This document shows positions 6,044 to 64,000 of a DNA stretch of 64,000 bases, piece after piece (the first letter of the stretch is position 1; the number at the start of each line of letters is the position of its first letter). The DNA lies in contig NC_133400.1 of assembly GCF_047511655.1 (NCBI RefSeq), positions 315,001 to 379,000 of the forward strand, read 5' to 3'. A program made the position numbers and the translations under genes. The notes beneath the pieces were generated by a model. That model saw nothing but the letters and a program-made list of their open reading frames with translations. It was not told the origin of the DNA and made no database searches. The stretch comes from Castor canadensis. Taxonomy: Eukaryota > Chordata > Mammalia > Rodentia > Castoridae.

Positions 6044-6211
6044 TCACAGAAGATGAAGACTAAAGAACAGTGCAGCCAGTAAAGCCAGCAGGGCCCCCGG
6101 CTGGCGGTGGAGGCCAGGGGCCTCTGAGTAGCCATAGTTTGTCCTGCAGGAGCCATCCAGCTGGTCTAGTGGGATGGGTTCCTCCTCAGGAGGCTGCAGG
6201 TGATTGCTTGC
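6044..6211 (-). CDS. DPEP1: DPEP1 coding exon 10 (C-terminus, GPI signal, stop)
   Basis: Residues 356-410: [12 protein letters not shown], then C377 (interchain disulfide), then a hydrophobic tail. The TGA stop is at 6044-6046. The acceptor is CCCCAG. Human omega Ser385 is Glu here, with S384 next to it. Confidence 0.95.
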
Positions 6212-9200
6212 CTGGGGACACAGACACAGGTTAGGCAGCTGGCCCAGTGGCTGGGGAAGAGTGAGAAACATGGCTGGTCACCTCGCCCTCACCTTCTCTA
6301 CTTCTGAGAAGACCCTCAGCAGGTTGTCAGACAGCACACCCCTGACCTCCACCTCTGTCCAGTTCCTCCTAAGCAGCTCAGCAATCAGGTCTGGGTACTT
6401 GGAGACATCCTCCAGTCCCACAGGGAGCCTGTGCCGAGGCCAAGAGGATGGGTCAGGCCACTCCCAGGGCACCCGGAGGCCAATAGAGCAGGCTTATACC
6501 AGGATGTCCTGAGGCTCAGGACATCCTCCTCACCCCTCCATTCCCTCAGGACATTGATGAGGTCACAACCCCGCAGTTCATCACAGGACAAAGTCTCACA
6601 CTTACCTCTCAACACCATCATAGTCCCCTCCAAGGCCCACGGCCCTGGCGCCTGCCACCTTCTTGATGTGATCCAGGTGGTCTGTGGGGAGTGACAGGTA
6701 TAGATCTCATATGCGAGGCCTCCCCCTCTTGGCCACCACAGGGTCACAACCCACCTACCAGCCACTTGGGACAGGCTGGCCTCCTTCGTGCAGGACACAA
6801 AGTCGGTGTAGAAGTTCACCATCACCAGGCTTCCCGTGTCCTTCTGCTCAGAGAGAGGTGGGGGCTGAGAGCAAGCAAGAACCCATGGGAGGCAAGGGGC
6901 TCCCCTCCGCACCCCAGCCCCTCACCACAAGCTGGAGGACATCGTCAGGCACGTTCCGCCCACTTGGACACAGGCTGTAGGCAGAGGAGTGGCTGAAGAT
7001 GACCGGGGCCTTAGACAGCTGCAGGGCAGCCTTCATGGTATTCACAGACACATGGGCCAAGTCGATCATGATGCCCAGACGGTTCATCTCCTTCACCACG
7101 CGCTGGGGGAGGAGACAGGTCTGGGGTCCACCTCACTGCCCCCCAAGGTCAGGGCACAGGAGAGGCAGCACTGGACCAGGTGTTAATTAACCCTTCGATG
7201 GCTAGAAGTTTGGGACCCACTCAGGGTTCAGGGTTCTGAACTCCAGTGGGTTCCAGCAAGCTCTCCCTGGGGACAAGCACTGTAGCTCCATTTTACTGAC
7301 AAGGAAACAGGTCCTAAGAGGTAAGACACCCTATATTAGTCCCTCTCTGTACCTTCTCTGGAGACTGTGGTCCTTGCCCTTCCCCCTCACCTGTCCAAAA
7401 AGTGATAGCCCTTGGTTCTCAGCCTTGTCACTTCCTCCATCCATCTGCCAGTTTTCTGCCCTGGAGAGCAAAGTGCAGGTGTCTGAAGAGTGGGATGGAG
7501 GTCTTGGCCCCACCCTCACCCACTGGCTGACAAGACCTGGCCTAGAGGGGCCTTGGGAGAAGAGGAGGGCGCCCAAGGGATACGAGGGATAATGTTTGCT
7601 CACGCCCCTCATCTACAGCCCCAGGGTCCTCACAGTCAGGCACCCTTACCAGGGTGTGTCACAGTTGTGAGTGAGGGTCAGGTACCGCATGCCTAGGTGA
7701 TAGAGTGCCCGCAAGACACCCAGGCTGCTGTCGATGGAGTGACCGCCCTCCACGCCAATCAGACTGGCCACCTTCCCCTCCTGGAAGGCCTGCTGGACGC
7801 CTGCAGAGAACAGGGGATGGCAGCACTGGGTGTCCAGGGTCCAAGGTCCTGCCCCAGCATCAGCAACCCTACTTGAGAAGAAGCCTGGTGGGGAACTCGG
7901 GGGCCTAGGCTGGGACCCCACCTTCACTGCTGGTGACACAAAGGAAGGTCTCAGGGTATGTTTGGCACATGCGGTTTATGACGTCCATCTGCTCCAGTGT
8001 CCTCTTCACGGCGTCCTTGTTCTGGGTGTCGCAGGGTATATACGCAGACCAGAACTAGGGACAAAGGGGGAAGAAGCTGATGGCCCAGCACCCCCGTGTG
8101 TACATAATGTCCGGTCTGGATGCCCCGGTGTAACACATGCTTTTGCTGAGGAACACTGACTCCTCACTTGGCCCACAAATTAACTGAAAGCAGAATAAAA
8201 GCTAGCTGTCCCAGCCTGCATTTTAGATCTGTGTCCTTTGTTCTGATCTATTCTCTCATTGAAATCTTGGAAGAACAGGACAGATTGATAACATCTTTAT
8301 AACAAGGAAGAGCAGATCCTTCAGAAGATAGACCACCTGCCAGGTGTCAGTGACTCTTACTGTAACAAGGCCACATCTGACAGTCCTGGGACAATGAGCT
8401 ACCAGACCCCGCTGATACCTCTGACCACCAGAACACACCTGTGACTGAGACTATTTAATAATTGTGCATACCTCCCCCCTCAGTTCCTACCCCTATTAAC
8501 CCTAAAGCAAATGTCTAGAAGACAGAAGAAGTGCTTTCTTCCCATGGCTGCTATGTTGTGTGGTAAATTTCCTTTCTCTGTTCTTTGCTATTGCTCTGTA
8601 TTTGCCATACTGGAGTGAGTGACAAGCCCTGACCTATGGAACCCAGGAATTTGGGCCTGGTACCTAAAACCTCCTGTAACACCAGGGTGGCCCAAGTAGC
8701 TGTGCCCTGCTCCTGGGTGGCTCCACTGGCTGTGCCCTGTGTGTGTGTAGGGGTGGGGATGGGGGGCACGAGGCATGCCACACCAAGGAGGGCCACCTGC
8801 CCACGGGGGAGGTGCTGTGTACTCCCATGCAGAGAATGTGCAAGACAGAAAGGGCGTACCTGACCCCCCACAAAGCCAGCCTTCAGCTTGGGGATGTTGG
8901 TGTGAGTGTCAGTCAGTGTGGTCAGGTTGGCCCTCTGATCCTGCAGCTGGTTGTTGAACAGTTTCAGCAGTTGCCAGGGCAGGTCATTGTGCCTGGGGGA
9001 GGCAGAGGGATTCAAGGTAAGTCAAAGTATCCACTTGCACCTGGAACTTCTGAGCAACATAGTCCACAGGTTGTCCTCTCCACCTCCTGCTCCCATAGCT
9101 TAGTACATGGGGGTGAAGATTACACGTTACCTGAACACATCTGCCAAAGGTGAGTTTCCTAACTGTACCCCACCCCAGGCCAGGTAAGTGTGAGCTGAGC

Positions 9201-11484
9201 ATAGCTGGATGGGTCCCTGTCTTCCAAGACCTTTCTGGAAGGAGGAGAGGGTAAACGACTGCTCTGCTTCAAAATTGCCTGGGACTGGGAGGGAACCAGC
9301 TGAGACAACCTCCTAAACCTGACCTTCATAGCTTAAAGGTTAAATCTGCCCTTTCAGGGAGGGGACAGCCTGGCCCCATCTCCTCCCCTGCCCACAGAGC
9401 AGGACAGCAGGCAGAAGACTCTGGCTACCCAGGCCCCTCTGTTTCCTCTATCGCTAGGGGAAAGCCCTAATGAGCTCCCAGTCAAGTCTGTCTGCCTCTG
9501 CTGGCTGAGGTCCTCTCAGCTCCTCCCAGGAGCAGCTGGGGAAAGAGGGAGAGAGCTTCCATGAAGAAATGGGGAAGGCCATTCAGAGGTGGTGCTGAGT
9601 GGGCCTTGGGAGGGCCTCCAGCTCTGTCCAGGTAAGCCTGGGACCTACTCCTCCCTGAACTCCAGCAGATGGAGCCCAGGAACAGCCCAAGTCAGCAGTC
9701 ACTAGAAATGCACCCTGAGACCCAGCTCAAAGCTTGAGTTGAGATGTACACCTTGCTGATTTTCATGCACAGGATGGTTTGAGGAGGTGCTTGGGGCCCA
9801 GACAACAGATACCAGTGTCTGGGTGGTGTTGAGCTGGGGCCGCAGGTTCCCTGTAAGGTGGCCTGAGACCACCTCCCCTCCCCAGGTCTGGCTCCATCGC
9901 CCCTGTCTAGTAGTTTCCATCGTGAGTTCCAGTTCCCCTGTGCCTCGCTTTCCTCATCTGCTCTCCATATCATGGGATGTCTCAGTGTCTTCCTCAGAGA
10001 GTAAATTGTGGGGGTAAATGAGTAACTGGTAATACAGCCGTGTGATCCATTCATCCTGTGCAGCATCTTGGAAACTACCGCGCCTCTGTCATCCCCAGGG
10101 TTACAGCCACAGAGGCCTGTTGTCCCCCACACAGCCCCTGGTTCTCCCATGGTCAGCATGGGGACATGACTACAGCACCACATCATGTCACATTTGCTGA
10201 TGCTGCCACCATCAGTTCCCCTTTACCCTGACCCAAATCCACCACTTCCAGAGCCAGTCGACCCTCAAAGCTCCTTTGGGGAAACAGAGAGACATGCAGC
10301 CCTCCCTGGGCTGATGCCCCTAGGCAAAGAGGCACAGGCTTCAGTCTCCAGTGTGAAAATCAGTCCCCAGGAAAGGTGCCCTGAGGGTCTTGTCCGGTCC
10401 TCCTGGGGCCCCCACCACAGGTGTCATCTTCTGGAAATTGTGGGATTTGATAGTCTGAGCTGAGTTGCTGTCTCCAGCACTTGACAGGGTGATCAGGATG
10501 CATTTATCAAATGGATGAATGAGTGGTGGGTGACCGTGCACCAGCCAAGGGTAGCCTCACTGTGCAGGGGCAGGGCAAGGCAGGGCTCCAGGAAAGGGAC
10601 TTTAGTCCTTTGTCAGAGGACATGTACAACCTGTGTACTAGACAATCCGTCCCCAGCATGGGTGTCAGGGGGATGGGTGGGGCCCTTGGGACCCCAGGAG
10701 CCCCCCGGCAGCACTTAATGGCTGTCTGTGCTCCTCTTTCTTCATGCCTGTCCACCTTCCATGGAAAGACAAAATAGGAGGGCAGGGCCTCCTGTGTCCC
10801 AGGGAGACAGAGCCACCGCTACCTATGCCACTCAAACTGCACTTCTGGAGGCTGTGGGCCTTGGGGGCCGTCAGGGGGCTGGAGGGGAATCTATCAGAAG
10901 TCCCCATAGTGACGCAGAGTGGAAGAGGGTGGGGAGACAACTTGGAAAGGAGCAGGTAAAGGCCGCTAAGCAGCCAAGCAAGGTCAGAGGGCACAGTGAG
11001 GGCAGGATGGGCACGCACGCAAGGTCCCCCATGGCAAGAAAGAGAGGTGTTAGGGCATCTGCCACTGGGCCAGGCAAGAGAGAGGAAAGCCTTCTGCGAA
11101 CCTGTAAGGACGCCACCCTCACCTGCACTTCTGAGGGAGGGAGCTGAGGCCCAGACAGTTGACATGACTGGCTGGCCGTCCCCTGCCCCCACCCCACACT
11201 GAACTTGGGAGCCCTGGGAGGCAGGGACTTAGCCATGCCTCCTTTCTGCCCTATCCCAACAGACCCTCCTCCGCCAAAGCCTTTGGGGCCCTGAGAGATC
11301 CCACAGAGAAACTGAGCCCCAGCTAAGGCGAAGTGTGTGAGCCTCCCACCCACTCCCCCACTCAATAGGTGGCCACTCACCCATCAACAACAGGCGTGTC
11401 TCGCATGATTTTTTCTGCCTGTTCCCGGAATGAGTCTGCAGCACAGACAGCCAGGAGGGGCCAGAGCCACCAGCTGGTCCACAT
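6044..11484 (-). CDS. DPEP1: DPEP1, membrane (renal) dipeptidase 1, complete coding region in ten exons
   Basis: DPEP1 is a GPI-anchored zinc dipeptidase of kidney brush border and other epithelia. It cleaves dipeptides such as Cys-Gly from glutathione breakdown, converts leukotriene D4 to E4 and hydrolyses carbapenems. Coding exons on the minus strand are 11381-11484, 8860-8992, 7922-8054, 7650-7800, 7391-7460, 6926-7102, 6759-6843, 6606-6681, 6293-6428 and 6044-6211. They join in frame into 410 aa (human 411) with GT/AG at every junction. A signal peptide, [16 protein letters not shown], leads. Zinc ligands are all present: H36 and D38 (GHNDLPW), E141 (GVEGGHS), H214 (DLAHVS) and H235 (FSHSS). 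Cysteines C87/C170, C242/C274 and the dimer cysteine C377 are kept. The tail ends in a hydrophobic GPI signal ([16 protein letters not shown]). Differences from human: Glu at the omega position 385, two fewer N-glycosylation sites and an extra C118. It looks intact. Confidence 0.97.
6293..6428 (-). CDS. DPEP1: DPEP1 coding exon 9
   Basis: Residues 310-355: [20 protein letters not shown], the N332-W-T glycosylation site and [12 protein letters not shown]. The donor is GTGAGG. Confidence 0.95.
6606..6681 (-). CDS. DPEP1: DPEP1 coding exon 8
   Basis: Residues 285-310: [20 protein letters not shown], then DGVER. The aspartate of GGDYDG is part of the active-site wall in this family. Acceptor CCACAG, donor GTAAGT. 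Confidence 0.93.
6759..6843 (-). CDS. DPEP1: DPEP1 coding exon 7
   Basis: Residues 257-285: [18 protein letters not shown] and onward to LSQVA. C274 is kept. The human N-glycosylation site in this exon (NLS) is absent, reading ASLS here. Confidence 0.95.
6926..7102 (-). CDS. DPEP1: DPEP1 coding exon 6 (two zinc histidines)
   Basis: Residues 198-256, 59 codons. It contains zinc ligands H214 (IDLAHVSV) and H235 ([10 protein letters not shown]), plus C242. Confidence 0.96.
7275..7330 (-). repeat. MIR-like fragment in DPEP1 intron 5
   Basis: 'ccattttactgacaaggaaacag' is the recognisable core of the ancient mammalian MIR SINE. It is short, and its ends and orientation are uncertain. Confidence 0.45.
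7391..7460 (-). CDS. DPEP1: DPEP1 coding exon 5
   Basis: A 70-bp exon, residues 174-197: [20 protein letters not shown], then FGQ. It is the least conserved part relative to human but the same length. Confidence 0.93.
7650..7800 (-). CDS. DPEP1: DPEP1 coding exon 4 (zinc-bridging Glu)
   Basis: Residues 124-174, including [21 protein letters not shown]141 bridges the two zinc ions. C170 pairs with C87. Confidence 0.96.
7922..8054 (-). CDS. DPEP1: DPEP1 coding exon 3
   Basis: Residues 80-124: [20 protein letters not shown] and onward. C87 is kept. An additional cysteine at 118 (TFLCVTSS) replaces the human Tyr. Confidence 0.95.
8132..8640 (+). mobile_element. LTR of an unclassified endogenous retrovirus family (copy A), in DPEP1 intron 2
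   Basis: It shares an ordered series of blocks with the copies at 30.7-31.9 kb and 37.8-38.3 kb. These are a 5' start like TGTAA, 'actgactcctcacttggcc', 'aattaactgaaagcag', 'gaccacctgccaggtg' and a U5-like 'aaatttcctttctctg' near the end. It lies in sense orientation on the + strand, opposite to DPEP1. It is a diverged fossil with no coding region seen; the right edge is approximate. Confidence 0.6.
8860..8992 (-). CDS. DPEP1: DPEP1 coding exon 2 (first zinc ligands)
   Basis: Residues 35-79, [16 protein letters not shown] through GFVGGQ. Zinc ligands H36 and D38 and the N57-L-T glycosylation site are present. Confidence 0.96.
8993..11380 (-). other. DPEP1: DPEP1 intron 1 (between coding exons 1 and 2)
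   Basis: 2.4 kb of mostly unique sequence. Apart from a MIR-like piece near 9.93-10.05 kb I see no repeat or further exon. Confidence 0.7.
9925..10050 (-). repeat. MIR-like fragment
   Basis: 'gcctcgctttcctcatctg' followed by 'gggtaaatgagtaactgg' matches inverted MIR wording. It is ancient and eroded. Confidence 0.5.
11381..11484 (-). CDS. DPEP1: DPEP1 coding exon 1 (start codon, signal peptide)
   Basis: The ATG at 11484 sits in context CCTCACAATG. It encodes a 16-residue signal peptide and the mature start [15 protein letters not shown]. The donor is GTGAGT. This ATG is the one aligned with human Met1. Confidence 0.95.
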
Positions 11485-35996: not shown

Positions 35997-36033
35997 GAAC
36001 CTCAGACCATGTTCTGCCCCGCCAGCGTCCAGT
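35997..36033 (+). other. SULT5A1: SULT5A1 5'UTR part of coding exon 1
   Basis: A CTTGCCTGCAG acceptor ends at 35996, leaving a 37-nt leader. It contains one out-of-frame upstream ATG. Confidence 0.55.
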
Positions 36034-36175
36034 ATGAGCAATCACAGGGACGTCGTTGAGGTCTTCGATGGTATCCGCTTTCCTGGGTTCATGCACACCA
36101 CAGAGTCCCTGAAGGCGGCTTGTTCCTTTGAGTTCCAGGACACAGATGTCCTCCTGGTGACGTTCCCCAAATCAG
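36034..36175 (+). CDS. SULT5A1: SULT5A1 coding exon 1
   Basis: MSNHRDVVEVFDGIRFPGF through VTFPKS plus one base, donor GTGAGA. The ATG at 36034 is chosen because the nearest upstream ATG in the exon is out of frame and the in-frame one at 35968 lies before the acceptor. Confidence 0.88.
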
Positions 36176-39100
36176 GTGAGAAGCTGAAGCTGGGGCCCGG
36201 GCGAGACAGCCACACTGCTGCCACCCTCTGCCCACAGGGCCCCAGTCCCCGCCCTGACATGGGGAGTGGACCCCTAAAGTCCCTCCCTCTGTCACATATG
36301 GATCTAGCTTAAGCCCAGGGGCTGCCTCTCTGGCCTGAGTCTGCAGTGTCAAGTCCAGGTACCAGGCTGCACCCAGGGGCTGCATGGAGTCCCCCAGAGC
36401 CTTGCTGACAACTCCCCGCTCCCATCTGCAGGGCATCCTTAGCCAGGACTTCAGCAGGCCCTCCCCCTCCCTCCTGTTCCTTGATCTCGCGTGCTCCCCA
36501 TAATCTCTCTGGATTGTGTGAATGTGTGTCTCTGCAAGTCTAGGAAGGACGTGAACAGGGCTCTGGGGATGGCCTGGGGGTGTCAGGAAGGAGGTCAGCT
36601 CCACCTGGGGTCCTGGGGGTGGGGTGTGGCCTTTTATAACAGGCCCAGCTTCCTCTGAGCCATAGCAAGGTAGATTGTATTTGCCTCCCTCCCCTCTAAT
36701 GAGAGGTGAGAGTTTATGAGCTGTCAGGGACAGCTCAAGTCCTTCCTCCAATGCCACAGGTGCCAGCTCTACAGGACCCTGCATGGTCACCCTATGCATC
36801 CGAAGTCCGTACAGAACAGGCACCTATGGGGTGGGAGTCCAGTGGGGAGTGAGTCATAGCTGGCACCTTAGGAGAAAGGTGAAGGACCCATCCACCATAG
36901 CCTCCTGGGGACAGCACTGCTCCATCATGGAGTGGCTATAACCAGGTCCTGCCTCATCTGCCTAAAGGCCCAGGGCAATGGTGACCTACCTGAGGAGCAA
37001 TCCTCAACAGGCAGTGGCCTGGTGAAGACTGCCCCAGGGGACCCTCTGGCCAGGTGCCTCTCTTTCCCCCAGGGTGCAGAGTTGGGGATCTGTTGTGTTG
37101 CCCCTCCTAGGCCCTGACCTGCCCCAGTCCCTGTACCCACCAGCCATTGCCACCACGTGGACCTCCCTTGACCCCTTTCTCCCTGGTCCTAACCCCTCCC
37201 TTTAGGCCTCACTGTCCCCGCCCAGAGGCCAGGCCTGTGGTCAGTGCTTCCCACCAGGAGGGACTGGTGGGCTAGAATCTACCATCCACCATGTACCCTC
37301 CTATGCCTGGGGATAAGGGGAGTCATGGGCCCTGGGTCCTGAGGCCAGAAGTAATTTCTCTGTGTCTCTGTTCAGGTGCACCTTCCCTCAGGAGATTGTG
37401 TGAACAGAACCAGACAGAGCAGGATCTGGCTACAGGGACTGACCTGTGTTACCAGCCCCCTAACCAGTGTTTACCCAGAATGTGGGGAAGGGGCTGGACA
37501 GGATGGAGGCAGTGACATAGCAGAAGTCTTTGGAGTTGAGAGCTGGTAACCTGAGTGGTGACTGGGACAGAACAGGGAGGAGTGGACCAGGCTTTGAAGC
37601 AGTGGGGTCCCATTTGTTTTGTCTCCACTCACCCTGCAAGATAAGGTAAGGAAGAGTCCCTGTGTCCTCCCATCACCACACATCCAACCCAGGTGTCCAG
37701 GACCTTTGACATCTCCAAAGGTCACCCTAGGAAAGGGTGGTTCCTTTGGGCGACTGGATACCTCCTGCTACTGTCAGGAGCACCTCCTTGATGTCATGGT
37801 GAAATGGCCAAAATTTCTCAGAAGAAACTTTGGTCTGGCCAGGCCTGGTGAAGGCAGAGAAAGATTTATTACACTGCTCGGGAAGAGCCAGAGTAAGCGT
37901 TCAACCCATCTTTGGCCATCTTTAGGGTACAGAGATGAGCTCTAGGTTTAAATGGACCAAGAACTGGGGGGAGGGGACAAAAGGTATGTATAAACGGTTC
38001 AGTCACAGTGTGTTCTGGTTGATCATTATCTCAGTCCTGGTTCTGGGAGAGGTTGTAATCTAGATCAGTGTCACCTGGCAGGTGGTCCGTCCTGAGGAAG
38101 GTCTACTGTTGAGGGTAGTTTCTGTCCTTTGTCATGAAGAAGTTATCATCCCTCTTGCCTGGAATCCAGGGTGACTGCAAGTGACTGTGAAGAGAATGGC
38201 TTAGAGCAACCTCTAAGGAGGAGAGATACCATGCTCTTCTCCTGCTGTTAGTTAATTCGTGGCCCAAGAAGGAGTCAGTGCTCTTCAGCAAAAGCAGTTT
38301 GAGCACCTCTTGCAAAATATGTGAGGAAAGAAATGTAGGCTCAGTGGTAGACACTTGCCTCAGCATTGCACCCAGCATTGCAGAGGGAGATAGAGACAGA
38401 GAGAGAGAGAGAGAGAGAGGGAGAGGAGGAATGCTTTCTGGAAGATCCTCCTCACCACCAGGACTGGAACATTCCAGAACATCAGTCAAGAAGTTGTGGT
38501 CCCTGCTCCACGCTCAGGACACTTGGGCCTGGGACCCTGCAGTGCACCAGAGGCTCCCTGGGACTTGTGTGATGGCCCTGCCCCAGATATGCCACCCCTG
38601 GAGATCTGCATCCAACTGGCAGGGGGTGGCCATTCACAAAGAAGGCTTCTACAGATCCGGGGTAACAGTCTCCCCTCTTTCTGCCTCAGGTCCTCACCTC
38701 TGCCTTTCCCAGCAGAGCTCCTGTGGGGTCACACACGTACCCAAGAGGCTGTGGCCTTCCATGTGGTGAAGTACCCCATCTCAGACCAGGGCCCTCCCAC
38801 TGCTCTGCGCAGGAACTCGGGGTGTGGATGGAGAGTTCAACTCAGCAGGAAGGTGTGTGTGAGGACAGGGTCTCCCAGATCAGTTGGCTTTCTGCTTCCG
38901 CTGGGAGTCCCTCCCTGCCGTGAGCCTCTGCTGGCTCTTGTTGCTGTGTCTGATGCTCTTTGCAGACCCAGACTCTCTCCCCTCCCTGCCTGTTGATAGC
39001 CCAAGACACTCATGGCCTGATCGTGCTCGCATGCCACCACATGTGACAGAGGGACTTTGTGGCTGTGACTAAGGCAAGGTCTTGAGATGGGCATCCTCCT

Positions 39101-42100
39101 GGATTACCAGGAACCCCATCATCATAGGATCGTCAGGAGAGGGAGGCAGAAGCTCAGAGCTCGAAGAAACAGCATGGTGATGGCTGAGACCAGAACCAGA
39201 GAGGCGAAGATGCTTCCGTGCTGGTTTCCAAGGTGGCAGAAATAGCCGTGAAGGAATATGGTGACCCCTAGAAGCTGAAAAAGACAAAGAAACCGATCCT
39301 CCCGGAGTCTTCAACCCAGTGGGTGTTCTAGTTCTATTTGTTATAGTGGCTGCACCTGGAGGTCAGGAAGGCGCCTGAGGTCCCTCAGCCTCTCCACGAA
39401 CATGGAGCAGTCACAGGGCCCATCCTGGCCATGCCACACCCAGCACCATGCAGATGCTGAATACCTACAGCCTGGAGTGGCTGGAGCTTGAGCAAATGGC
39501 TGAGTTGAACACACAGCATGCTGCAGATCTGGCCTTTCTACAACAGAGCACAAAGGGCCCTCGGCATTTCTCTGCCATCCGCTGGGAAAACCTGCTCCTT
39601 GAGCCTGCACCTCACTATGTAGCTGCCCCTGTGTCCATCCATCCCAAGTCCCTGAATGCTTTCCTTTCCTCTTTTTGCAGTGAGGTCTATACTATGCACA
39701 GTGGTACCCTTATCTGTGGTCTGTTACCCATGGTCAACCACAGTCCAAAAACATTAAAAGGAAAATTCCAGAAATACACAATTTATACGCTAAATAATTT
39801 TTCTTTCTTTTCTTTCTTTCTTTCTTTCTTTCTTGTAGTTCTGGGGTTTGGACTCAGGGTTTTGTACTTGCTAGGCAGGCACTCTACCACTTGAGCCACT
39901 CCACCAGTCCTTTTGGTGTTGGTTATTTTTGAGATAGGGTCTTGCTTTATGCCCAGGCCAGCCTGGACCACAATCCTCCTATTTGTGCTTCCCTTCATAG
40001 CTGCAATGACAGGCATGTGCCACCATACCCTCTATTACAGTGCACTGTTGTAATTGTTACACTTTATTATTGTGGTCAAGCCATAATAAGGTATCTCTGC
40101 TGTAACAGTACTACTTTTCACTTTGTAATGAAAATATGTCCTATGGGGGATACTTTGAAACTGTTTTCTTGTCAACGTCCTCTCAAGGTCTTAGCATCCT
40201 TGGCTCCTTCCAGAACAATTAGTTTTAGCATCCCTGGCTCCTCTCAGAACAATTATCAGGGCAGTTTTCCAATGGGAGCCTTCTAATTCCACCCCTCTGT
40301 ACTTGGTCAGTAATCGAGGTGGTCAGCTTTCCATCACTCCAACAAATACCTGAGATGGTCAACTTATAAAGAGGAAAGGTTTATTTTGGTTCACAGTTCC
40401 AGTCCATATTTTGGGGCTGTGGTGGTACATTATTGAGGGGAATGCTTGGTGAAGCAAAACTTCTCACCTCACAGATGGGAAGGGAAAAAGAGAAAGGGGA
40501 AGGGACTGGGGTATAGCTCAGTGGTAGAGCATTCACCAAGTATGCATAAGGTCCTAGGTTCAATCTCCAGCACCACCGAAATAAGAGGAAGGGGAAGGAC
40601 ATTGAGGTCCTGCTACACCCTTGAGGTCCCACTACTTCCAGTAGAGACACTCTGGGGACCAAACTTCTAATGCCTGGGCCTTTCGGAGACATTTCAGATC
40701 TAAACTATAGCACTAGCTGACAAAGTACTGTCATAGTTTAATTTGCACTTCTCTAAGTTTGAGTGGGGTCAATAACATTTTCAGTGGGACTTAGACTATT
40801 GTCCAATATGCAATTTATAAAGGAATGTGACCATTTTTTCTTCTTGTACTTGGATGGTTGCAATTTTTACATTCAGAATCCCTGATTTATATGGAGTTTA
40901 CTCACATGCATGGTGTGAGGTCGGGATCTAATGTTACCTTTTGCTAAATGGGTACCTTGTTGCCCAGAGAGGCTGTCCTTGTCCAGAGCACAAGTGTTTC
41001 CATGCACCTGTGTCTACCACCGGGCTTCCTGCACAGGGTCAAATGCTTTGTTGGCTTTGTTCTGATGTCTAGAAGGCTAGTTTTTGTGTATTTGTTTTTA
41101 TGTAACTTAAGTATCTACTTGTCTAACTCTTTTATTAGGATTGGATTTGATTTACAGATTAATGTGGGAGAACTGGTTTATTTATTTTTTCAAGTCATCC
41201 TGTCTGAGGACAAAGGATTCTCTCCATCTGCCCAGCCCGCCCCGAGTCTTCACAGAGGCGTGAGCACTGTTCCGATGTAGGCATCACATGCTCACTCCCT
41301 CCTACGGCCTGCCTCTGTCCCTGTTGTGAGTGAGGTTTTCTCTGCTGTTATGCCCGCTAACTACCTACTATTTGTGCGTATGAGGACAACTGCTTTTCTT
41401 CTAAAACATACTTCTTCTTTTCTTTCTTTCGTTTGCTTTTTCAGTGATGGGGATGGAACCCAGGGCCACACAATTCTAGACAAGTGCCCTAACCACTGAG
41501 ACACACCCACAGCCCGAAACATATTTTTTCATAACCTGCTGGGATTCTAAGACAGAAATTAGCACTGAGATGTGGGGGGGTGCAGCTATAACAAGTTCTA
41601 AACTGTGGGTACAGTCTTGGAGCTAGAGGGAAGGAGGTGGAAGAGATTTGAGGTGCGTGCTAGAAATGGCACATGTTGTTAGGAGCAGATAATTCTAACT
41701 CAGAAAGAAAAGAGAAGGGTCCACTCAATGTAGAGTGCTTGCTTAGCACTTGCAAGGCCCTGGGCTCCATCCCCAGCACTGCTCCCCTCAAAAGAAATGA
41801 GGACTATTGTAGAGAACCCCAGTCTTCTTAGAAAATAAAATACTCAAGTGCTCAGGAACAGAATATTGGTAGAATATGGATGGCAGTGGCCATTCGATGA
41901 GGTCTCAGATGGAAATGAGAGAGGTGTCATTGGAAACTTGGGAAGAGGTGACCATTGTTACAAAGTGGCCGAGCACTTGCCTGAACTGGGCTCCTATTCT
42001 GTTTCTGGGAGGCAGAACTGTGAGTGACATTGGTAGGAGGAGCTGCAGTACCCCCATCGCCCACATTTCACTGCCTGCTCCACCTGGCTCCCACCCCTCA

Positions 42101-45100
42101 TGCCGCACGGGTACCACATGGATGCAGCAGGTTCTGAGTCTGATCTTCTGTGAGGGCAACTTGTGGCCCATTCGCCACCTCCCTAACTGGATCCGTGCAC
42201 CTCGGATAGAGCATATCTCCTTCAGCAGCCTCCTTGCCCAGTGGGACACCACCCGGCCGCCGCTGCTCACCACTCACCTTTGTGCCAAGGCCCTGGCCCC
42301 GGCCCTGATGAAATCCAAGACTCGGGTAAGAGAGAGTCCCCCTGCCCCATCCCAAGTGTCTCAGAATCAGAGCCAAGTCCTGGGGCCAGGCTCTCTGGAG
42401 CAAAACGGTGCTAGGGGGGTTTCACTTTACCCTCAAGTACTAGTACTAGTACACTGAGTACAAACGGGCAGAAATCCCAGCCCTGGCTAGAGCTGAGGAG
42501 CTGAGGCAGGGTCTATAGGGCGGAACCTTCTGTTTCATTGCTGGGTCAGGGGTACAGCACAGCATAGGTCACAGAGCAGCATAGGGTGGGTCAGGCAGGT
42601 CAGTCCATGATCCAGGGGAGGTGAAGGCCTGAGTCATCCATCTTGGCCTAGTAGATGGCTATGGGGAAAAGAGGTCCTTCTACACCTGGGAGGGTGTAGA
42701 AACAAATGGACCTTGCAGAGAGAGGTCCCTGCCAGAACCACTGGCAATGTCCAGGTCACTTGGATCTGGGTGGAGCCTAGACAGGTGAGGCCCCCACCTT
42801 GTGCTCAGAACCTGAGGGAATGAGTGAACTAATTACGATGTCACTTCTGCAGGGCTCAGCCTGTCCCTCTGTCCCTTGCTGGGAGTGACCAGTTCAGAGC
42901 AAAGAAGACTTCTTGCCTGCCTTTAGTTAAATCTGCTTTCAGGACAGCCCAGGGCCTGGCTCACCTGTTCACCAGCCACATGAGGGTTTTGCAGGCTGCT
43001 GCTCAGAAAGCCAGGTCTGTCCCAGGCTTCCTCTCCATGCCTGGCATTCACCTCACCACTCCTGGGTTGAGGGCCCCAAGCCAGAGCTGTGTGACTTTTC
43101 CCACCAACCTTCCTAGACAGGGCACTGCCACCAAGGTCACAGCAGGCAGGGAAAGTCCCAAGCCTGAAGGCATCAGGTTTGGGGCACACTCTGCACAGGT
43201 GGTGTACATGGCGCGGAACCCCAAGGATGTGCTTGTTTCCTTCTACCACTTCCAACGAATCGCCAACTTCCTGCCAGACCCCAGCTCATTCCAGGACTTT
43301 ATGGATGAGTTTCTTGAGGGCACAGGTGGGTTTCAGGGACTGAAAGTGGTGTCTAGGGCCCCCACCTCCTGTCACCAGGCTGGTGGGGCAGCCTTCATGT
43401 TCTGGCCACTTAAGAGGATACCCTGCTTTTCAGGGGCCCTGCCCAGTATGTTCCCTATCTCTTTCTTCCCCAGTCTTCTACGGCTCCTGGTTTGACCACA
43501 TGAAGGGGTGGCTGAGCCTCCAGAAAAATCTAAACATGCTTCTTATGACCTATGAGGAAATGCACCAGGTGGGTACCCCTCCCATGCAGCCCACCATCTC
43601 CAGCTGCTGAACCCTCTTCGGTCAAAGCCCTTGGGCCCCCAACTCTTCCAGAACATTTGTGATGCACTCTCGCCTGGGATAGGTCTTCCCAGAGATACCT
43701 TTAGACCTGTGATTGCTCCTGATTCATACTTCCCAAAACTAATGCCAACTGTCAGTTTGGAGTTTTGAGAATGGCTTTTGTGTGCACTTTAAATTTTAAT
43801 AGTTAATGTATTAATGATCTAAAATATAAATCCTAATTCTCCTTAAGTTATACATTCAAGTTTATAATTTTTTTTTTTGGGTATTGAGGTTTGAACTTAA
43901 GGCCTACATCTTGAGCCACTCCACCAGACCTTTTTTTGTGAGAGATTTTTCCAAGATAGGGTCTTGCAAACTATTTCCCTGGGCTGGCTTTGAACCGCAG
44001 TCCTCCTGATCTGTGCCTCCCGAGTAGCTAGGATGACAGGTGTGAGCCACCGACACCCGGCAAGTCTATGAATTTTATTATCCTGTTCATTGATCAAGGG
44101 AGTCTTTCACATTTGACTCCATCTATAACTTAGATCAGCTCCTATAAACATTTTTATGGCATTCATAACTTCAGTCTATTTGCTCCTAAGTCTAAGGGAA
44201 CAGACAGGCCTTCTGATTACTCAACCCACTCTGGCACAGCCACCAGTTTCCACGCATGACACTTGAGAACCTTGAGTTCTCTGAGCTGTTCCAATATCAT
44301 GTGTAAACAACAAGATTTCAACTCAGAATAACAAGTTGAAATTCACTTGATAGTATGTTTTAGTGTACGTCCACAAGGCTGACCTCTCAGAAGCCTACAG
44401 ACCTCATCCCCAATCCTTGGGGCCACATGTGCTTAAGTATTCAGGGTCACAGGGTCTTGGGACCACACACCTTCCACACATGCTGTGATGCGGCAGGGAC
44501 TGCTCAACAGACCCAGCAGACAGTACCACTTCTGCCTCAAGCCAGACAAAAATGATCACAGCCTCACATTACCGAGGCCAGGTTTTTCCAACCAAATGGG
44601 TTTTGGTACAAAAATTAACAACCAGTTCCCAAAGCTTTTGGATTTGGGAATGGTATTGGGATGTGTGGCCAATTCTGTAAAATACAAAGTTTTGTTCTTC
44701 AGAATGTCTATACTAAGTTTTTGGTCCTCTTAAGATTAGGGATGGTGCTGACCCCAGGTTGAACAGGGCTCAGGTCCTGGCATGTGAGTAGGGGCTGAGA
44801 TCAGACACACTGTAGTCGTCTCCTTTTTCACTGACTTTTTTTCTGTGTCCTCTGGGCTCAGACTTTACTACAGAAGCAATTTTTTCCTAGTCACTGATGT
44901 TTTCCCAGAACTTACAGTAGTGCCTGGTATGTGGTAGGTGCTAGGAATATGTTTGCTAAATGAATGAAAAACAGATGCTCATGCAGATGGAGGTGACAAT
45001 GAGGAGCCAGGTGACTTTAGGGCCTCCTTTCCAGTAGATGAGTTGTAATGTCCAGTGATATTGCCAGTGTGTGGCTGGAAATATCTTGGAGGATTCTGAG

Positions 45101-48100
45101 AGCAGTATTACCATCAGCAAACAGGATGGCAGCTGGCAGAGAGGCTCAAGTGATAAAGAGCCTGCTTAGCAAGTGAGTTCAACCACCTCCCCCCCAACAC
45201 ACACACACAAACACAGGATGGCAGTGCTTCAAGCTTCAAGAACGTTTGATCGTGTAGCTCTTGGGACCTATGGTTCGATTCATAAATTCATAGCTGTGCT
45301 AGGACCTCTGCCACCCCCATCAACTAACTGGGTCTTGTGTTTTTTTGGCTCTTAAGATAACTACCCAGCTACCTGTCCATTTATTTAACCATCCACCCCC
45401 ACCCATCTACTATCATCTACCTATCTCTCTATTCATCCATTAATTCACTCATCTGTCCACCATCCAGTTATCCATCTACCAACCATCAATCAATCCATCC
45501 ATCCATGTGTGTATCCATCTAGTTTTTTTTTTTAATTTTCTCTACTTTTACAAAGTGGAGCTTGCATTGCACATGCAACATTTTGCATCCTTTGTTTTTC
45601 CCTTAACATTTCAATGTATTATTTTCCCATGCATTTTGAGTGGCTACATAATACTCTATGATATAGATACATCTCGAATTTCCCTTCAGTGTTGGACATT
45701 TGTGCTGTTTCCAAGTTCTTGCCATAAAAAAACCGTGCTGATCTGAGCATGGTTGCTCACATTTGTGGTCACTTAGTGTATTATTTTAGGGTCCTAAATC
45801 TCTGTTGCACATATGTATCCTCCCTGTGTGTTTCCTCTCTGGGCCCAGGAACCTCGGGGCACCATCCAGAAGCTAAGTGACTTCTTGCAGCACCCGCTGG
45901 GGCCGGAAGAGAAGGACCTCATCATGAGGCACTGCAGTTTCTCCTTCATGAGCGGCGTAGTCAACTACAGTCTGGTATCCAAGGAAATCATGGACCAGAA
46001 CCGGGGCAAGTTCCTACGGAAAGGTACCAGGCCTTCCAGCCTCTGTTCAAACTGCTGCTGTTTCCTGGGCCCCATTCTTGGGCCAGTCAGCCCTTGTCCT
46101 CTCACACCTGGCTTCAGTTCCCACATCTGCCCTGTCTACTCACCTCCTTCACCTTCCTTTCTGGCTTTCATCTCTCTCCTCATGAGCCTGTCCTGGTAAG
46201 GGCTTTAGGTTGACACTACAGAATTGACACAAAACAAGAACACCAAAAGCCATTATCAGAGGGGAGTGTCAGCCTGTGGCATTCTCCCCAGTGGCTGTCA
46301 TCATCTTCAGACTGCAGCTCTGACTCAAACCTCTCTGTTCCCAGGGCCCCCAAGCCCGACTTTTTTTGATCCCCTCTATGAGGGAGCCTCAACTCCATCT
46401 CCTCCAAACTATTGCTGCTCTGAGGGAAGCCAGCCCTCGTTCATTATCATGGGGAGAATCTGTCACAGTCCAGTCCCCTCACCCCACCCCGGTTGGGCAC
46501 TGTGCATAGCTCTTTCACTATCCTGAAGGACATCTATCTGTAGGTACTACAACCTGCCCTCCACCCCATATGTCTGAGAAATGAGCAGCCTAACTGTCCT
46601 ATAGAGGAGGAAAGTAAGAAAAGTAACTTACAAAAAGACAAGTGTACAGTACAAAATGCTCAGCTCCTTCCACAGCAACAACTTACAATGGCACCATGAG
46701 GTCCGTGCCTCCCAGCTTCCTGCTCAATGGTGCTGCCACAGACCCAGACAGTACAGGTTCTAAAATGAAGACAGTGATTGGAGAAATTAGAACAAAATGA
46801 AACTCACCCTCACCTCGGTGACATGGCTGCTGAATTCTTGGGAAACTACGTACAAAGTGTCCTTAGGACCCTGTAGAAGGGAAGCTAGGCTCCAGGTGAA
46901 CATGGTTATGGATGGGGTTTAGGTCCATCCCAGTGTCTATGGGGTGTTTGGACACTGTGTGGGGCCATCTTAGCTTCACATCTCTGGTCCCACCGCATGG
47001 CAACTAAAAACATGGCCTGGGATTGCCACTGTCCCTGCTAAAACCCCTAGCTGGACCAGGACTCCACTGACATGTGGGACCTGGGGCCCTGTCTTCCACG
47101 ATGGCAGGTTTGCCGTCGCAGATATTACGGATGTCTGTATCCAAGGCATCAGCATGTCAAGTTCTTTGGTCGTGGTTGTTATTTGGTGGGACTAGAGTTT
47201 GAACTTAGGGCTTTGTCCTTACAAATCACGTGCTCCACTGCCTGAGCAGTCCATTTTTGGTCTGGTTATTTTGGAGATGGGTATCTCATGAACTATTTGC
47301 TGGGGCTGGCCTGGAACTGGGATCCTCCCTATCTCAGCTTCCTAAATAGCCAGAATTACAGGTGTGAGCCACCAGAGACAAGAGCTCACTCTGTAGCTAA
47401 GGTTGGCTTTATTTTTTTGTCAGTACTGGGACTTGAACTCAGGGCCTACACCTTGAGCAACTCCACCAGCCTGTTTTTGTGATGGGTTTTTTCAAGATAG
47501 GATCTTACAAACTATTTGCCCAGGCTGGCTTTGAACTGTGAGCCTCCTGATCTCTGCCTTTTAAGTAGCTAGGATTACTGGTGTGAGCCACTGGCACCCT
47601 ATCCAGGTGGGTTTTAAGCTTGTGATTCTCCTGCCTCAACATCCCAAGTGCAGCGCTTACAGGCATGTATCCTCACATCAGGCTCAACATGTCAAATTCT
47701 CAGGAAAGGTTCCAGTGGCCCCTCAGCCTCCTTGGCTCTAGAAGGAGCCAAATATGGCTGCAGGGTGGGATGGCTTCGGGTGACTGTTTCCTGTGGCTTC
47801 GACATGAAGAGCCACAGACAAGAGAAAACATCCCCTCACAATCCTGGAGGCCAGGGCTCCAAAATCATGGTGTCCTCAGGCCACGCTTCCTCTCAAGGCT
47901 CTGGGGAGGCTCCAAGCTGCCTCCTCCGTTCCCATGACAGTGACTCCAGCATTCTGGGGCCTGCAGCTACATTGCTCCAGGCTCTGCCCTATGGTCACTG
48001 GTTCTCTTCATGAAGACACAGTCATTGGATTAGAGCCCCTCATGACTGATGACACTGCAAAGGCCCTGCTTTCCCAGATAGCCAGGGCAGGACATGCACG

Positions 48101-48373
48101 CAGACTTCTGCAGGACACAATTCAGCTCATGGTGATGGGAGACAGTGGTCACCTCCTTCCCAGGGGCTCACAGAGACCCCTGGGGTGGGTGGTGTTTCTC
48201 CGAGTAGTTGATGTCTCCTCTCCCACGGCCTAACTCCTTTTTCTGTTTTCCCTGCAGGCGTAGTGGGGAACTGGAAGGAACACTTCACTCCAGAGCACAA
48301 TGAGAAGTTCAACGCCGTCTACAAGGCCAAGATAGGCGACTTTGGCCTTCGCCTACCCTGGACCATGGACTGA
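36034..48373 (+). CDS. SULT5A1: SULT5A1, cytosolic sulfotransferase family 5A member 1 (six coding exons; one abnormal acceptor)
   Basis: A cytosolic sulfotransferase moving sulfonate from PAPS to small acceptors; its substrate is unknown to me. Exons 36034-36175, 42111-42325, 43199-43325, 43474-43568, 45849-46023 and 48258-48373 join into 289 aa plus TGA. Lengths 127 and 95 bp are canonical for SULT genes. Motifs: P-loop TFPKSGTTW (43-51), catalytic His103 (LLTTHL), PAPS 3'-phosphate site ARNPKDVLVSFYHF (R125, S133) and the RKGVVGNWK signature (250-258). The Lys two residues before the catalytic His in SULT1 enzymes is Thr101. The dimer motif KxxxTVxxxE reads KEHFTPEHNE. Exon 2 is preceded by CCGCACGG, not AG, so the mRNA as written may not splice normally. 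Position between DPEP1 and CPNE7 matches mouse Sult5a1, which supports the name over other SULT families. Confidence 0.88.
37797..38314 (-). mobile_element. Unclassified ERV LTR (copy C), in SULT5A1 intron 1
   Basis: The best preserved member of the family also seen at 8.1-8.6 and 30.7-31.9 kb. On the minus strand it runs from TGCAAGAGGTGCTC through 'gaccacctgccaggtgac' to AATAAATCTTTCTCTGCC. It is a solo LTR fossil with no coding region. Confidence 0.6.
38393..38420 (+). repeat. (GA)n microsatellite
   Basis: An almost uninterrupted GA dinucleotide run with flanking GGGA units. Confidence 0.85.
39800..40028 (-). repeat. Dimeric B1-ID SINE with (TTTC)n, antisense
   Basis: A (TTTC)n tail complement, then 'ttctggggtttggactcagg' and B1 end 'tgcaatgacaggcatgtgcc'. 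Confidence 0.85.
40318..40713 (-). mobile_element. MaLR (MST/MLT-type) LTR fossil with an ID SINE inside
   Basis: 'cctgagatggtcaacttata' and 'gaaaggtttattttggttca' at one side and 'agacatttcagatctaaact' then 'atagca' at the other are an inverted MaLR LTR. AATAAA lies on the minus strand. It is ancient, broken and split by a SINE. Confidence 0.65.
40500..40592 (+). repeat. ID SINE of the older 'tagctcagtggtagagc' type
   Basis: 'ggtatagctcagtggtagag' with 'ttcaatctccagcaccacc' resembles the squirrel/common ID consensus rather than the local 'ggctcaag' dialect. It is inserted in a MaLR LTR. Confidence 0.82.
41435..41516 (-). repeat. ID SINE, antisense
   Basis: 'agtgatggggatggaaccca' and 'taaccactgagacacaccca'. 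Confidence 0.75.
41712..41792 (+). repeat. ID SINE, sense
   Basis: 'gtagagtgcttgcttagcac' and 'gggctccatccccagcactg'. Confidence 0.75.
42103..42112 (+). other. SULT5A1: Abnormal splice acceptor of SULT5A1 exon 2 (GG in place of AG)
   Basis: A pyrimidine-rich stretch (CTGCTCCACCTGGCTCCCAC) is followed by CATGCCGCACGG and then GTACCACATGG, which must begin the exon to complete GTTW. The last two intron bases are GG. No AG occurs between 42049 and 42111, and the flanking AGs checked would shift the frame. Confidence 0.8.
42111..42325 (+). CDS. SULT5A1: SULT5A1 coding exon 2
   Basis: Residues 48-119: GTTWMQQVLSLIFCEGNLWP and on to TTHLCAKALAPALMKSKTR. It completes the P-loop and carries catalytic His103. 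The donor is GTAAGA. At 215 bp it resembles the single fused exon of SULT2 genes. Confidence 0.88.
43199..43325 (+). CDS. SULT5A1: SULT5A1 coding exon 3
   Basis: The canonical 127-bp SULT exon, residues 120-161: VVYMARNPKDVLVSFYHFQR and onward. Acceptor CTGCACAG, donor GTGGGT. Confidence 0.94.
43474..43568 (+). CDS. SULT5A1: SULT5A1 coding exon 4
   Basis: The canonical 95-bp SULT exon, residues 162-193: VFYGSWFDHMKGWLSLQKNL, then MTYEEMHQ. Acceptor TTCCCCAG, donor GTGGGT. Confidence 0.94.
43868..44062 (-). repeat. Dimeric B1-ID SINE, antisense
   Basis: 'tattgaggtttgaacttaag' (ID) and 'cccgagtagctaggatgaca' (B1), in SULT5A1 intron 4. Confidence 0.85.
45130..45216 (+). repeat. ID SINE, sense, with (AC)n tail
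   Basis: 'gaggctcaagtgataaagag' and 'ctgcttagcaagtgagttca', then an ACACAC tail. Confidence 0.7.
45370..45515 (+). repeat. Degenerate (CCAT)n-type tetranucleotide repeat
   Basis: Repeated 'atccatc', 'ctatctc' and 'atccatccatcc' words over about 145 bp. Confidence 0.7.
45530..45770 (+). repeat. Old LINE-like fragment
   Basis: 'gagtggctacataatactct' and 'gtgctgtttccaagttcttg' resemble a common ancient LINE segment. The family is not fixed. Confidence 0.4.
45849..46023 (+). CDS. SULT5A1: SULT5A1 coding exon 5
   Basis: Residues 194-251: EPRGTIQKLSDFLQHPLGPE and onward to NRGKFLRK. It carries the first half of the RKGxxGxWK PAPS-binding signature. Acceptor GGCCCAG, donor GTACCA. Confidence 0.94.
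47175..47388 (-). repeat. Dimeric B1-ID SINE, antisense
   Basis: 'gggactagagtttgaactta' and 'ccagaattacaggtgtgagc', in SULT5A1 intron 5. Confidence 0.8.
47389..47690 (-). repeat. B1-like SINE interrupted by a dimeric B1-ID SINE, both antisense
   Basis: A B1 start ('gagctcactctgtagctaag') is broken by a full dimer (47410-47603, 'actgggacttgaactcaggg' to 'aagtagctaggattactggt'). B1 then resumes ('gattctcctgcctcaacatc'). Confidence 0.75.
47830..48135 (-). mobile_element. MaLR MLT1-type LTR fossil in SULT5A1 intron 5
   Basis: 'atcctggaggccagggctcc', 'cagtcattggattagagccc' and 'aggacacaattcagctcatg' follow the inverted MLT1 LTR order. It is ancient and diverged, with no internal region. Confidence 0.6.
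48258..48373 (+). CDS. SULT5A1: SULT5A1 coding exon 6 with stop
   Basis: GVVGNWKEHFTPEHNEKFNA through GLRLPWTMD and TGA at 48371-48373. Acceptor CCCTGCAG. It completes RKGVVGNWK. Confidence 0.94.
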
Positions 48374-48475
48374 CCCACCTGACCCACCCCAACCTGCTCG
48401 CTCTGGCCTGGCCTCATGACCTACACTGTACTTAACCCCTGGCCTGGTAATAAAAGCAGAAATTTCATGCTGCAT
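48374..48475 (+). other. SULT5A1: SULT5A1 3'UTR
   Basis: A short 3'UTR of about 100 nt from the stop codon to just past AATAAA. Confidence 0.7.
48449..48454 (+). terminator. SULT5A1: SULT5A1 polyadenylation signal AATAAA
   Basis: AATAAA in 'cctggtaataaaagcag', 76 nt after the stop codon. Confidence 0.8.
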
Positions 48476-49714
48476 AGACCCTGCTTCAGGTCTAACCTGG
48501 GCCTTTTGACTCTAGCACCCTTCTCCTTGGGACTTCACGGTGAATCCAGAGCCCCAGGACATCCTTTGCCCTCAAAAGCCTGGATACCTGCTGCACTGCA
48601 GGCCTCCCTTCCTCCCCCAGGGCCACAGCATGGAGGATGCAGGAGGGAGGGTCCTGCAGGCCATCTAGCAGCCTCCCCACTTGTCTGGGGGTGAGGGGAG
48701 CATATTTCACCCCAGAGAAGCTGAAATGAAGGGTTGGGTTGGGAGGTAGCACCCATCACCTTAAGTAATTAGAAGGGTCCCTGCTTCCTTCCTGGGACTC
48801 TAGAATGTGTGGGCAGTTCACCCAGCATGGCCCTTACCCCAGCCACAGATCTGCAATGGCCAAACTTCCATGCTCCAGGAGGAAGGCACCACTGGACCCC
48901 TCTTGGCCCTATGTTCTTCTATGGGACATTTCCAGCTACCACTGGCACACAATGGCTTACACCAAGAGGGAGTGCACTGGCCCGTGTTGCTGGCTCCAGT
49001 ATAGCTCAACTCAAGGCTCAGTCACTGTTTTAGGGCAAATGAGCCCGTTTTCACTCACTACCCACTGTCAGCCAACTCAACCCTCCCTGGACTCAAGGCC
49101 CAACCAGAGCCTTCAGCAGGATCCCTGGCCTTGGCTGAGCTGCTGGGGAGGGACCCTGGTTTGCATAGGGTAAGGCAGTATAATGTCAACTTTGGGCCTT
49201 AGGGTCAGCGTTCTGCCTGGAGGAGCCTTGAGACCCCACGAGACAGAAGACCCTGTAGAGTTAGGAACCCATTCCACAGACAGGAAACAGGCACACTAGG
49301 GAAGGAGGGAGGGGGCCAGTGTGAACCCAGCCCTCTGTGAGTGCAGAGCTAGCAGTTGTGCCCCTCTGCTTCTCTTCAAATGGAGAGCTGCAACCCCAGG
49401 GGTTAAGAATCACAAACCTGGCACTGAAGTGTACACTACCCACTGCTGAGCACTGGCCACAGCCCACAGGAACGAGGTGCCCAGTCTGCAACCGACTGCC
49501 AGGGTGGGTTGGGAGGAGGGCTCCCACTGCACGGCCCTACCTGTTGCAGTGCTGTCCTCATAGCCTGGGTGCACAAAGCCTAGCCTGGCTTGCTGTTGGT
49601 CCCAGGCCACCAGGGTCCACAGAGGACACCTTAGAAAAGAAATGCAAAGGCAGGAAAAGCTTGCCAAGGGAGGACAAACTGCTCTCCTCCCAGTTTTTTC
49701 TCCTGGACAAGAAT

Positions 49715-57742: not shown

Positions 57743-64000
<6,258 letters not shown>

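What the first reader, a model, noticed from the sequence alone, without database searches (positions are those of the whole stretch)
42103..42112. SULT5A1 reads open throughout but its P-loop exon has GG instead of AG as acceptor
All six exons join to a 289-aa sulfotransferase with key motifs intact, and every other splice site fits the rule. Only the exon that completes the PAPS-binding P-loop (TFPKSGTTW) is preceded by CACGG. The nearest upstream AGs I checked (exon starts at 42037, 42040, 42043 and 42049) and the downstream AGs at 42127 and 42130 all change the reading frame. Either the gene has just been inactivated by one splice mutation, the species uses a rare GT-GG intron, or the base is an assembly error or a polymorphism. 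Human, as I recall, has no functional SULT5A1, so lineage-specific loss is plausible.
Basis: partly seen in the sequence, partly recalled or inferred. Interest (0 to 1): 0.75.

Follow-up and report, generated by a model that had tools for sequence, protein, structure and literature searches.

The report
Beaver sulfotransferase gene with broken splice site
The American beaver's copy of the sulfotransferase gene SULT5A1 is otherwise readable but lacks the usual splice signal in front of the exon that completes its cofactor-binding loop, so it is most likely a recently lost gene: a tidy but ordinary kind of evolutionary event.

Summary
Six exons join to a 289-aa SULT5A1, and exon 2 is preceded by GG at 42109-42110. 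The other 13 introns checked (4 here, 9 in DPEP1) are GT-AG. The window is Castor canadensis: its DPEP1 exons match the beaver protein 410 of 410. The one beaver SULT5A1 row found (UniRef) is identical except at the P-loop, where it looks like a contrived GC-AG model. No NCBI beaver SULT5A1 was listed, though NCBI beaver DPEP1 is held. Beaver alone has W79R, R98P (119 of 119 other rows keep W and R) and a two-residue deletion. None of 92 in-frame AG alternatives restores PKSGTTW. Best reading: early unitary pseudogene (0.68). Signs of relaxed constraint are mixed: branch length is ordinary and four other rows carry equally severe changes. A working GT-GG intron (precedent BANP, PMC4176328) and polymorphism are not excluded. 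No reads or RNA could be examined.

The parts
36034..36175 (+). SULT5A1 coding exon 1 (142 nt), ends TFPKS-G; carries the Lys46 and Ser47 half of the 5'-phosphosulfate loop
   Evidence: homologue matches from 36013-36034 to 36177
36176..42110 (+). Intron 1, GT...GG; donor CAG|GTGAGA is strong, acceptor dinucleotide is GG
42109..42110 (+). GG in place of the AG acceptor of exon 2; AG-free stretch of 60 bases upstream (20-57 at the four AG acceptors of this gene)
42111..42325 (+). Coding exon 2 (215 nt), completes the P-loop (GTTW) and carries beaver-only W79R and R98P
42010..42011 (+). In-frame AG upstream (exon start 42012), best-scoring AG alternative seen: would insert 33 residues inside the P-loop, 322-aa product
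42126..42130 (+). AGCAG: two nearest downstream AG acceptors (exon starts 42128 and 42131), both frame-shifting
43199..43325 (+). Coding exon 3 (127 nt)
43474..43568 (+). Coding exon 4 (95 nt)
45849..46023 (+). Coding exon 5 (175 nt); in-frame 2-residue deletion after SFM relative to the 118 other rows aligned there
48258..48373 (+). Coding exon 6 (116 nt) with stop; AATAAA follows at 48449

Best explanation
This is the SULT5A1 gene of the American beaver in an early stage of unitary pseudogenisation. An A-to-G change at the last-but-one base of intron 1 (inferred; no ancestral DNA seen) removed the exon 2 acceptor. The spliceosome would then use a neighbouring AG or skip the exon. The best-scoring nearby AG (42012) keeps the frame but puts 33 residues inside the loop that holds the sulfate donor PAPS. 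In neither case is a working enzyme expected. The frame has no stop or frameshift yet but has begun to change at otherwise invariant sites. Shown: the sequence, frame consequences, beaver-only changes, and no intact beaver protein among listed hits. Inferred: direction of the mutation, RNA outcome, fixation in the species, loss of activity.
For: GG present; with the normal donor the seven outcomes named above shift the frame and four are in frame but break the loop. Of 462 donor-acceptor pairs near the junction, 92 are in frame and open and 0 contain PKSGTTW. UniRef beaver protein P0001 (representative of a 3-member cluster; the other two not seen) matches outside the junction but has EKLN for TTWMQQVLS, compatible with a GC donor at 36188 joined to an AG acceptor at 42139, both poor (-7.3 and -5.6, recalled matrices). 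No NCBI beaver SULT5A1 among listed hits, although NCBI beaver DPEP1 from a 102.6-Mb contig is held. W79R: 119 of 119 other rows have W; R98P: 119 of 119 have R; the SFM..NY segment has 11 residues in 118 of 119 others (one has none aligned) and 9 in beaver. With one species per Glires lineage, beaver has 13 private cells, 5 radical (three substitutions and the two deleted residues, gaps scored -4); six others have 3-11, 0-1 radical. W79 aligns with Trp77 of human SULT2A1, a residue that stacks on bile acids (PMC8134075 passages). In one search's 120 listed rows the named placental ones are all Glires.
Against: No stop or frameshift in 867 nt. The beaver end branch is ordinary: 0.15 against 0.10-0.20 in five other rodents, 0.14. 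At 65 near-invariant columns beaver has 2 deviations, within the 0-2 of the 14 singletons, and four of the other 113 rows also carry a change scored -2 or worse there. In the 33-species set platypus and garter snake (5 each) have more private changes than beaver (3). Lys46, His103 and RKGVVGNW are intact. GT-GG introns can be spliced (BANP). No RNA data.
Confidence: 0.68

Rival explanations
1. Functional GT-GG intron: the major spliceosome still cuts after CACGG, the 289-aa enzyme is made, perhaps at reduced level, and W79R reshapes its substrate pocket.
For: Frame fully open; context of the site like the exon 3 and exon 5 acceptors (1.8 against 1.4 and 2.1), strong donor, AG-free stretch of 60 bases upstream; precedent BANP, a GG acceptor conserved in most vertebrates (PMC4176328 passages); branch length ordinary.
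Against: Context weaker than the exon 4 and 6 acceptors (7.7, 9.1). Pairs other than GT-AG, GC-AG and AT-AC are put at 0.02% of human introns (PMC2882926 passage). BANP's GG is described as an alternative site. Radical private changes and a deletion. No intact beaver protein among listed hits.
Confidence: 0.12
2. Polymorphism: an AG allele segregates and the sequenced animals carry GG.
For: A single transition; no population data were available to exclude it.
Against: The UniRef model and the missing NCBI protein suggest GG in more than one beaver data set, if those are separate from the window; the other private changes are not explained by it.
Confidence: 0.13
3. Base-calling or assembly error at 42109.
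For: The 2017 beaver assembly started from uncorrected long reads (PMC5295618, passages and listing); the source assembly of the window is unknown.
Against: That assembly was polished twice with short reads, and in the coding exons of 40 loci residual errors were put below 0.02%, with indels and no substitutions. DPEP1 in the same window is 410 of 410 identical with 9 GT-AG introns. The UniRef model also avoids the site.
Confidence: 0.04
4. Alternative gene structure: exon 2 is joined through the in-frame acceptor at 42012, giving a 322-aa protein with a 33-residue insert that serves some other function.
For: Open frame, the best-scoring AG alternative seen (3.3), 81st percentile acceptor context.
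Against: The insert splits PKSG from TTW and should wreck PAPS binding (inference); none of the 40 other rows aligned shows an insert there (two are truncated there); no such protein among the 120 listed hits.
Confidence: 0.03

Closest known systems
Mammalian SULT5A1 (mouse Sult5a1 and orthologues)
   Same: Sequence, readable frame in six coding exons, and place in a supported SULT5A1 clade apart from 2B1-like paralogues (100/99)
   Different: GG acceptor before the P-loop exon, W79R, R98P, 2-aa deletion
Lineage-specific loss of cytosolic SULT genes, such as SULT7A1 pseudogenes in primates (PMC10939482, passages) and loss of SULT5A1 in other mammals (PMC4591525, passage)
   Same: Loss of a phase II enzyme gene in one lineage
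   Different: Very early stage: only one clear disabling site, frame still open
BANP GT-GG intron (PMC4176328, passages)
   Same: GT donor with GG acceptor; there derived from an ancestral AG
   Different: BANP's site has cDNA/EST support and is an alternative acceptor; no RNA evidence was available here

Membership tests
SULT5A1 | Sulfotransfer_1 domain and closest relatives are SULT5A1 | tested here: met
   PF00685 255.4 bits; groups with Glires, marsupial, bird and fish SULT5A1 apart from 2B1-like paralogues
SULT5A1 | Complete 5'-phosphosulfate loop and catalytic His in a spliceable mRNA | tested here: inconclusive
   TFPKSGTTW reads through only if the GG acceptor is used; TTHL present on exon 2
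Unitary pseudogene | At least one disabling change in the sole orthologous copy | tested here: inconclusive
   GG acceptor and no AG rescue with an intact loop; no second exon 2 in the window; rest of genome not searched
Unitary pseudogene | Relaxed constraint | tested here: inconclusive
   Private radical changes at invariant sites against an ordinary branch length and count
Unitary pseudogene | No functional transcript, fixed in the species | not testable with these tools
   needs RNA and population data
Functional GT-GG intron | RNA joining the donor to the base after GG | not testable with these tools
   no RNA data held
Functional GT-GG intron | Otherwise U2-like acceptor context | tested here: met
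   91st percentile context with a recalled matrix, though weaker than two of the gene's four AG acceptors

The most novel reading that the evidence does not exclude
Beaver SULT5A1 is still expressed through a beaver-specific constitutive GT-GG intron, and the enzyme has an altered pocket (W79R) with changed substrates, so the lineage combines a rare functional GG acceptor with new specificity.
Probability: 0.08. Interest if true: 0.5.

Novelty: new member of a known kind. Interest (0 to 1): 0.3.

Why it matters
If right, it adds beaver to the placental lineages without SULT5A1, catches the loss while the likely causal splice change is still visible, and gives a natural knockout of a poorly characterised phase II enzyme. 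If the GG acceptor proves functional, it would be a rare derived GT-GG intron in a mammal and a test of how much acceptor context can make up for a missing AG. It also shows an annotation hazard: the public beaver protein hides the defect behind what looks like a contrived GC-AG intron and lacks half of the cofactor loop.

Tried and rejected
Searched for a second exon 2 in the window with three rodent and one pika SULT5A1 protein: only the six exons match strongly, plus one inverted 3'-end fragment. Tried 42 GT or GC donors (36100-36419) against AG acceptors with exon starts 42000-42199: of 462 pairs 92 are in frame and open, 0 contain PKSGTTW, and of those 92 only the normal donor with 42012 scores above 3 at both sites. 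Looked for a long beaver branch as a sign of old loss: not found. A plain count of deviations at near-invariant columns did not single out beaver, and its severity there is shared with four other rows (P0014, P0089, P0100, P0109); beaver stands out mainly in the one-per-lineage Glires set. Looked for beaver among unnamed read-assembly ('lgn') rows: of seven, five are 94-99% identical to vole, gerbil or rat rows and two are nearest to fish. Literature listings: SULT5A1 (30 of 42 papers listed), with 'lost' and 'rodents', GT-GG, SULT gene loss, beaver genome (15 of 29 listed), Trp77; none of the titles listed is on beaver SULT5A1. No paper was read whole; passages only.

Timing, rough: with recalled substitution and indel rates, a frame with no further disabling hit points to loss within about 11.5-25 million years (95% bounds for three assumed rates). 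It is weak and depends on the rates.

Full report
Observation. The window reads ...CCGCACGG|GTACCACATGG at 42111, and six exons join to 289 codons plus stop with every other junction GT-AG. In-frame acceptors do exist with the normal donor, at exon starts 41922, 41946, 42012 and 42210; they put 63, 55 or 33 residues inside the P-loop, or remove 33 that include its second half. Of the 11 AG alternatives whose scores I saw, 42012 scores best (3.3; GG site -1.8; the four normal acceptors 5.4-13.1; recalled matrix).

Species and sequence quality. The best protein match is UniRef A0A8C0X1P7 of Castor canadensis, identical outside the junction. On the minus strand the window encodes beaver DPEP1, 410 of 410 residues, with 9 introns that I read as GT-AG. 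A copine gene, by position CPNE7 (name recalled; the Copine domain is), lies on the minus strand at the other end. SULT5A1 thus sits between copine and DPEP1 on the opposite strand. A general sequence-quality problem is therefore unlikely.

What the databases say about beaver. The UniRef protein has EKLN for TTWMQQVLS, which is what a GC donor at 36188 joined to an AG acceptor at 42139 would give; those sites score -7.3 and -5.6, against 4.3 to 10.5 for the five normal donors and 5.4 to 13.1 for the four AG acceptors. I read this as an annotation program stepping around the missing acceptor. Its Sulfotransfer_3 match falls below the Pfam cut-off (22.3 against 27; the 289-aa reading gets 34.5). 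NCBI's beaver proteins are in the same database (DPEP1, on a contig of 102,610,517 bases), but no NCBI beaver SULT5A1 appeared (159-506 aa; best 120 of 862 listed) or (about 94-298 aa; 96 hits at E 1e-40 or better). The P0001 cluster holds three sequences, of which I saw one. I cannot tell from which beaver assembly the window comes, so these sources may not be independent of it.

Is the frame still under constraint? Among 121 aligned rows, beaver alone (window and P0001) has R at residue 79 (119 of 119 others W) and P at 98 (119 of 119 others R), and alone lacks two residues after SFM (118 of 119 others have the full segment; one has nothing aligned there). With one species per Glires lineage, beaver has 13 private cells, 5 of them radical (W79R, R98P, G162V and the two deleted residues); six others have 3-11 with 0-1 radical. 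Residue 79 aligns with Trp77 of human SULT2A1, which stacks on the bile acid (PMC8134075, passages). Against this: the beaver branch is not long (0.15 against 0.10-0.20 in five other rodents; 0.14); a plain count at 65 near-invariant columns (2) is within the range of 14 singletons (0-2); four of 113 other rows carry equally severe changes at such columns; platypus and garter snake have more private changes in the 33-species set (5 each against 3); and catalytic residues are intact. So constraint looks relaxed, but not for long, or only in part.

Mechanism. The 5'-phosphosulfate loop is split by intron 1: Lys46 and Ser47 on exon 1, Thr49 and Trp51 on exon 2 (roles from PMC8134075 passages, by the alignment). 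Without the exon 2 acceptor the likely outcomes are use of 42012, with a 322-aa product whose loop is interrupted, or frame-shifting AGs or exon skipping with early stops. Either way no PAPS-dependent enzyme is expected. This is inference: no RNA was available.

Alternatives. A functional GT-GG intron is possible; BANP shows one conserved in most vertebrates, described as an alternative acceptor (PMC4176328 passages). The acceptor context here is like two of the gene's four normal acceptors and weaker than the other two. Rarity (other dinucleotide pairs put at 0.02% of human introns, PMC2882926 passage) and the other changes weigh against it. Polymorphism cannot be excluded. Sequence error is the least likely of these three.

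Wider setting. SULT5A1 orthology is supported by a tree that separates it from 2B1-like paralogues (100/99). Of the 120 listed hits (of 862), all 25 named placental rows are Glires, while the 120 DPEP1 rows listed from the same database include primates, carnivores, elephants and others. That fits loss in other placentals, as PMC4591525 states (passage), except that its 'rodents only' is contradicted by rabbit, pika, marsupial and platypus rows. Beaver would be one more loss, caught early.

Verdict. Real, most likely an early unitary pseudogene (0.68); a new member of a known kind. Interest 0.3.

Noticed in passing
window 42498-42659 (-) against 48314-48492 (+): Intron 2 holds an inverted, 73%-identical copy of the end of exon 6 plus 3'UTR (179-column alignment, E 4e-25). 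In a 15-residue comparison its decayed reading is nearer to 7 of 25 other rows than beaver's own exon 6, with 18 ties and none the other way. It could pair with the 3'UTR in the pre-mRNA; origin unknown.
   Followed up: partly
Marmot has a DPEP1 row but no squirrel-family SULT5A1 row is named among the 120 listed hits; possible independent loss in Sciuridae (cluster members were not seen).
   Followed up: no
literature, PMC4591525 (passage): Statement that SULT5A1 survives only in rodents among mammals conflicts with rabbit, pika, marsupial and platypus rows found here.
   Followed up: yes
UniRef A0A8C0X1P7 (P0001): Public beaver SULT5A1 protein is probably a contrived model lacking the second half of the P-loop.
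   Followed up: yes
window 6047-11484 (-) and about 58469-63539 (-): DPEP1 (exact beaver match) and a copine gene (Copine domain; probably CPNE7) flank SULT5A1 on the opposite strand.
   Followed up: partly
window 41873-42325 (+): The frame is open from 41873 straight through exon 2, so an alternative-first-exon product with in-frame ATGs (41876, 41897, 41909, 41915) is readable, but it lacks the PKS half of the loop.
   Followed up: no
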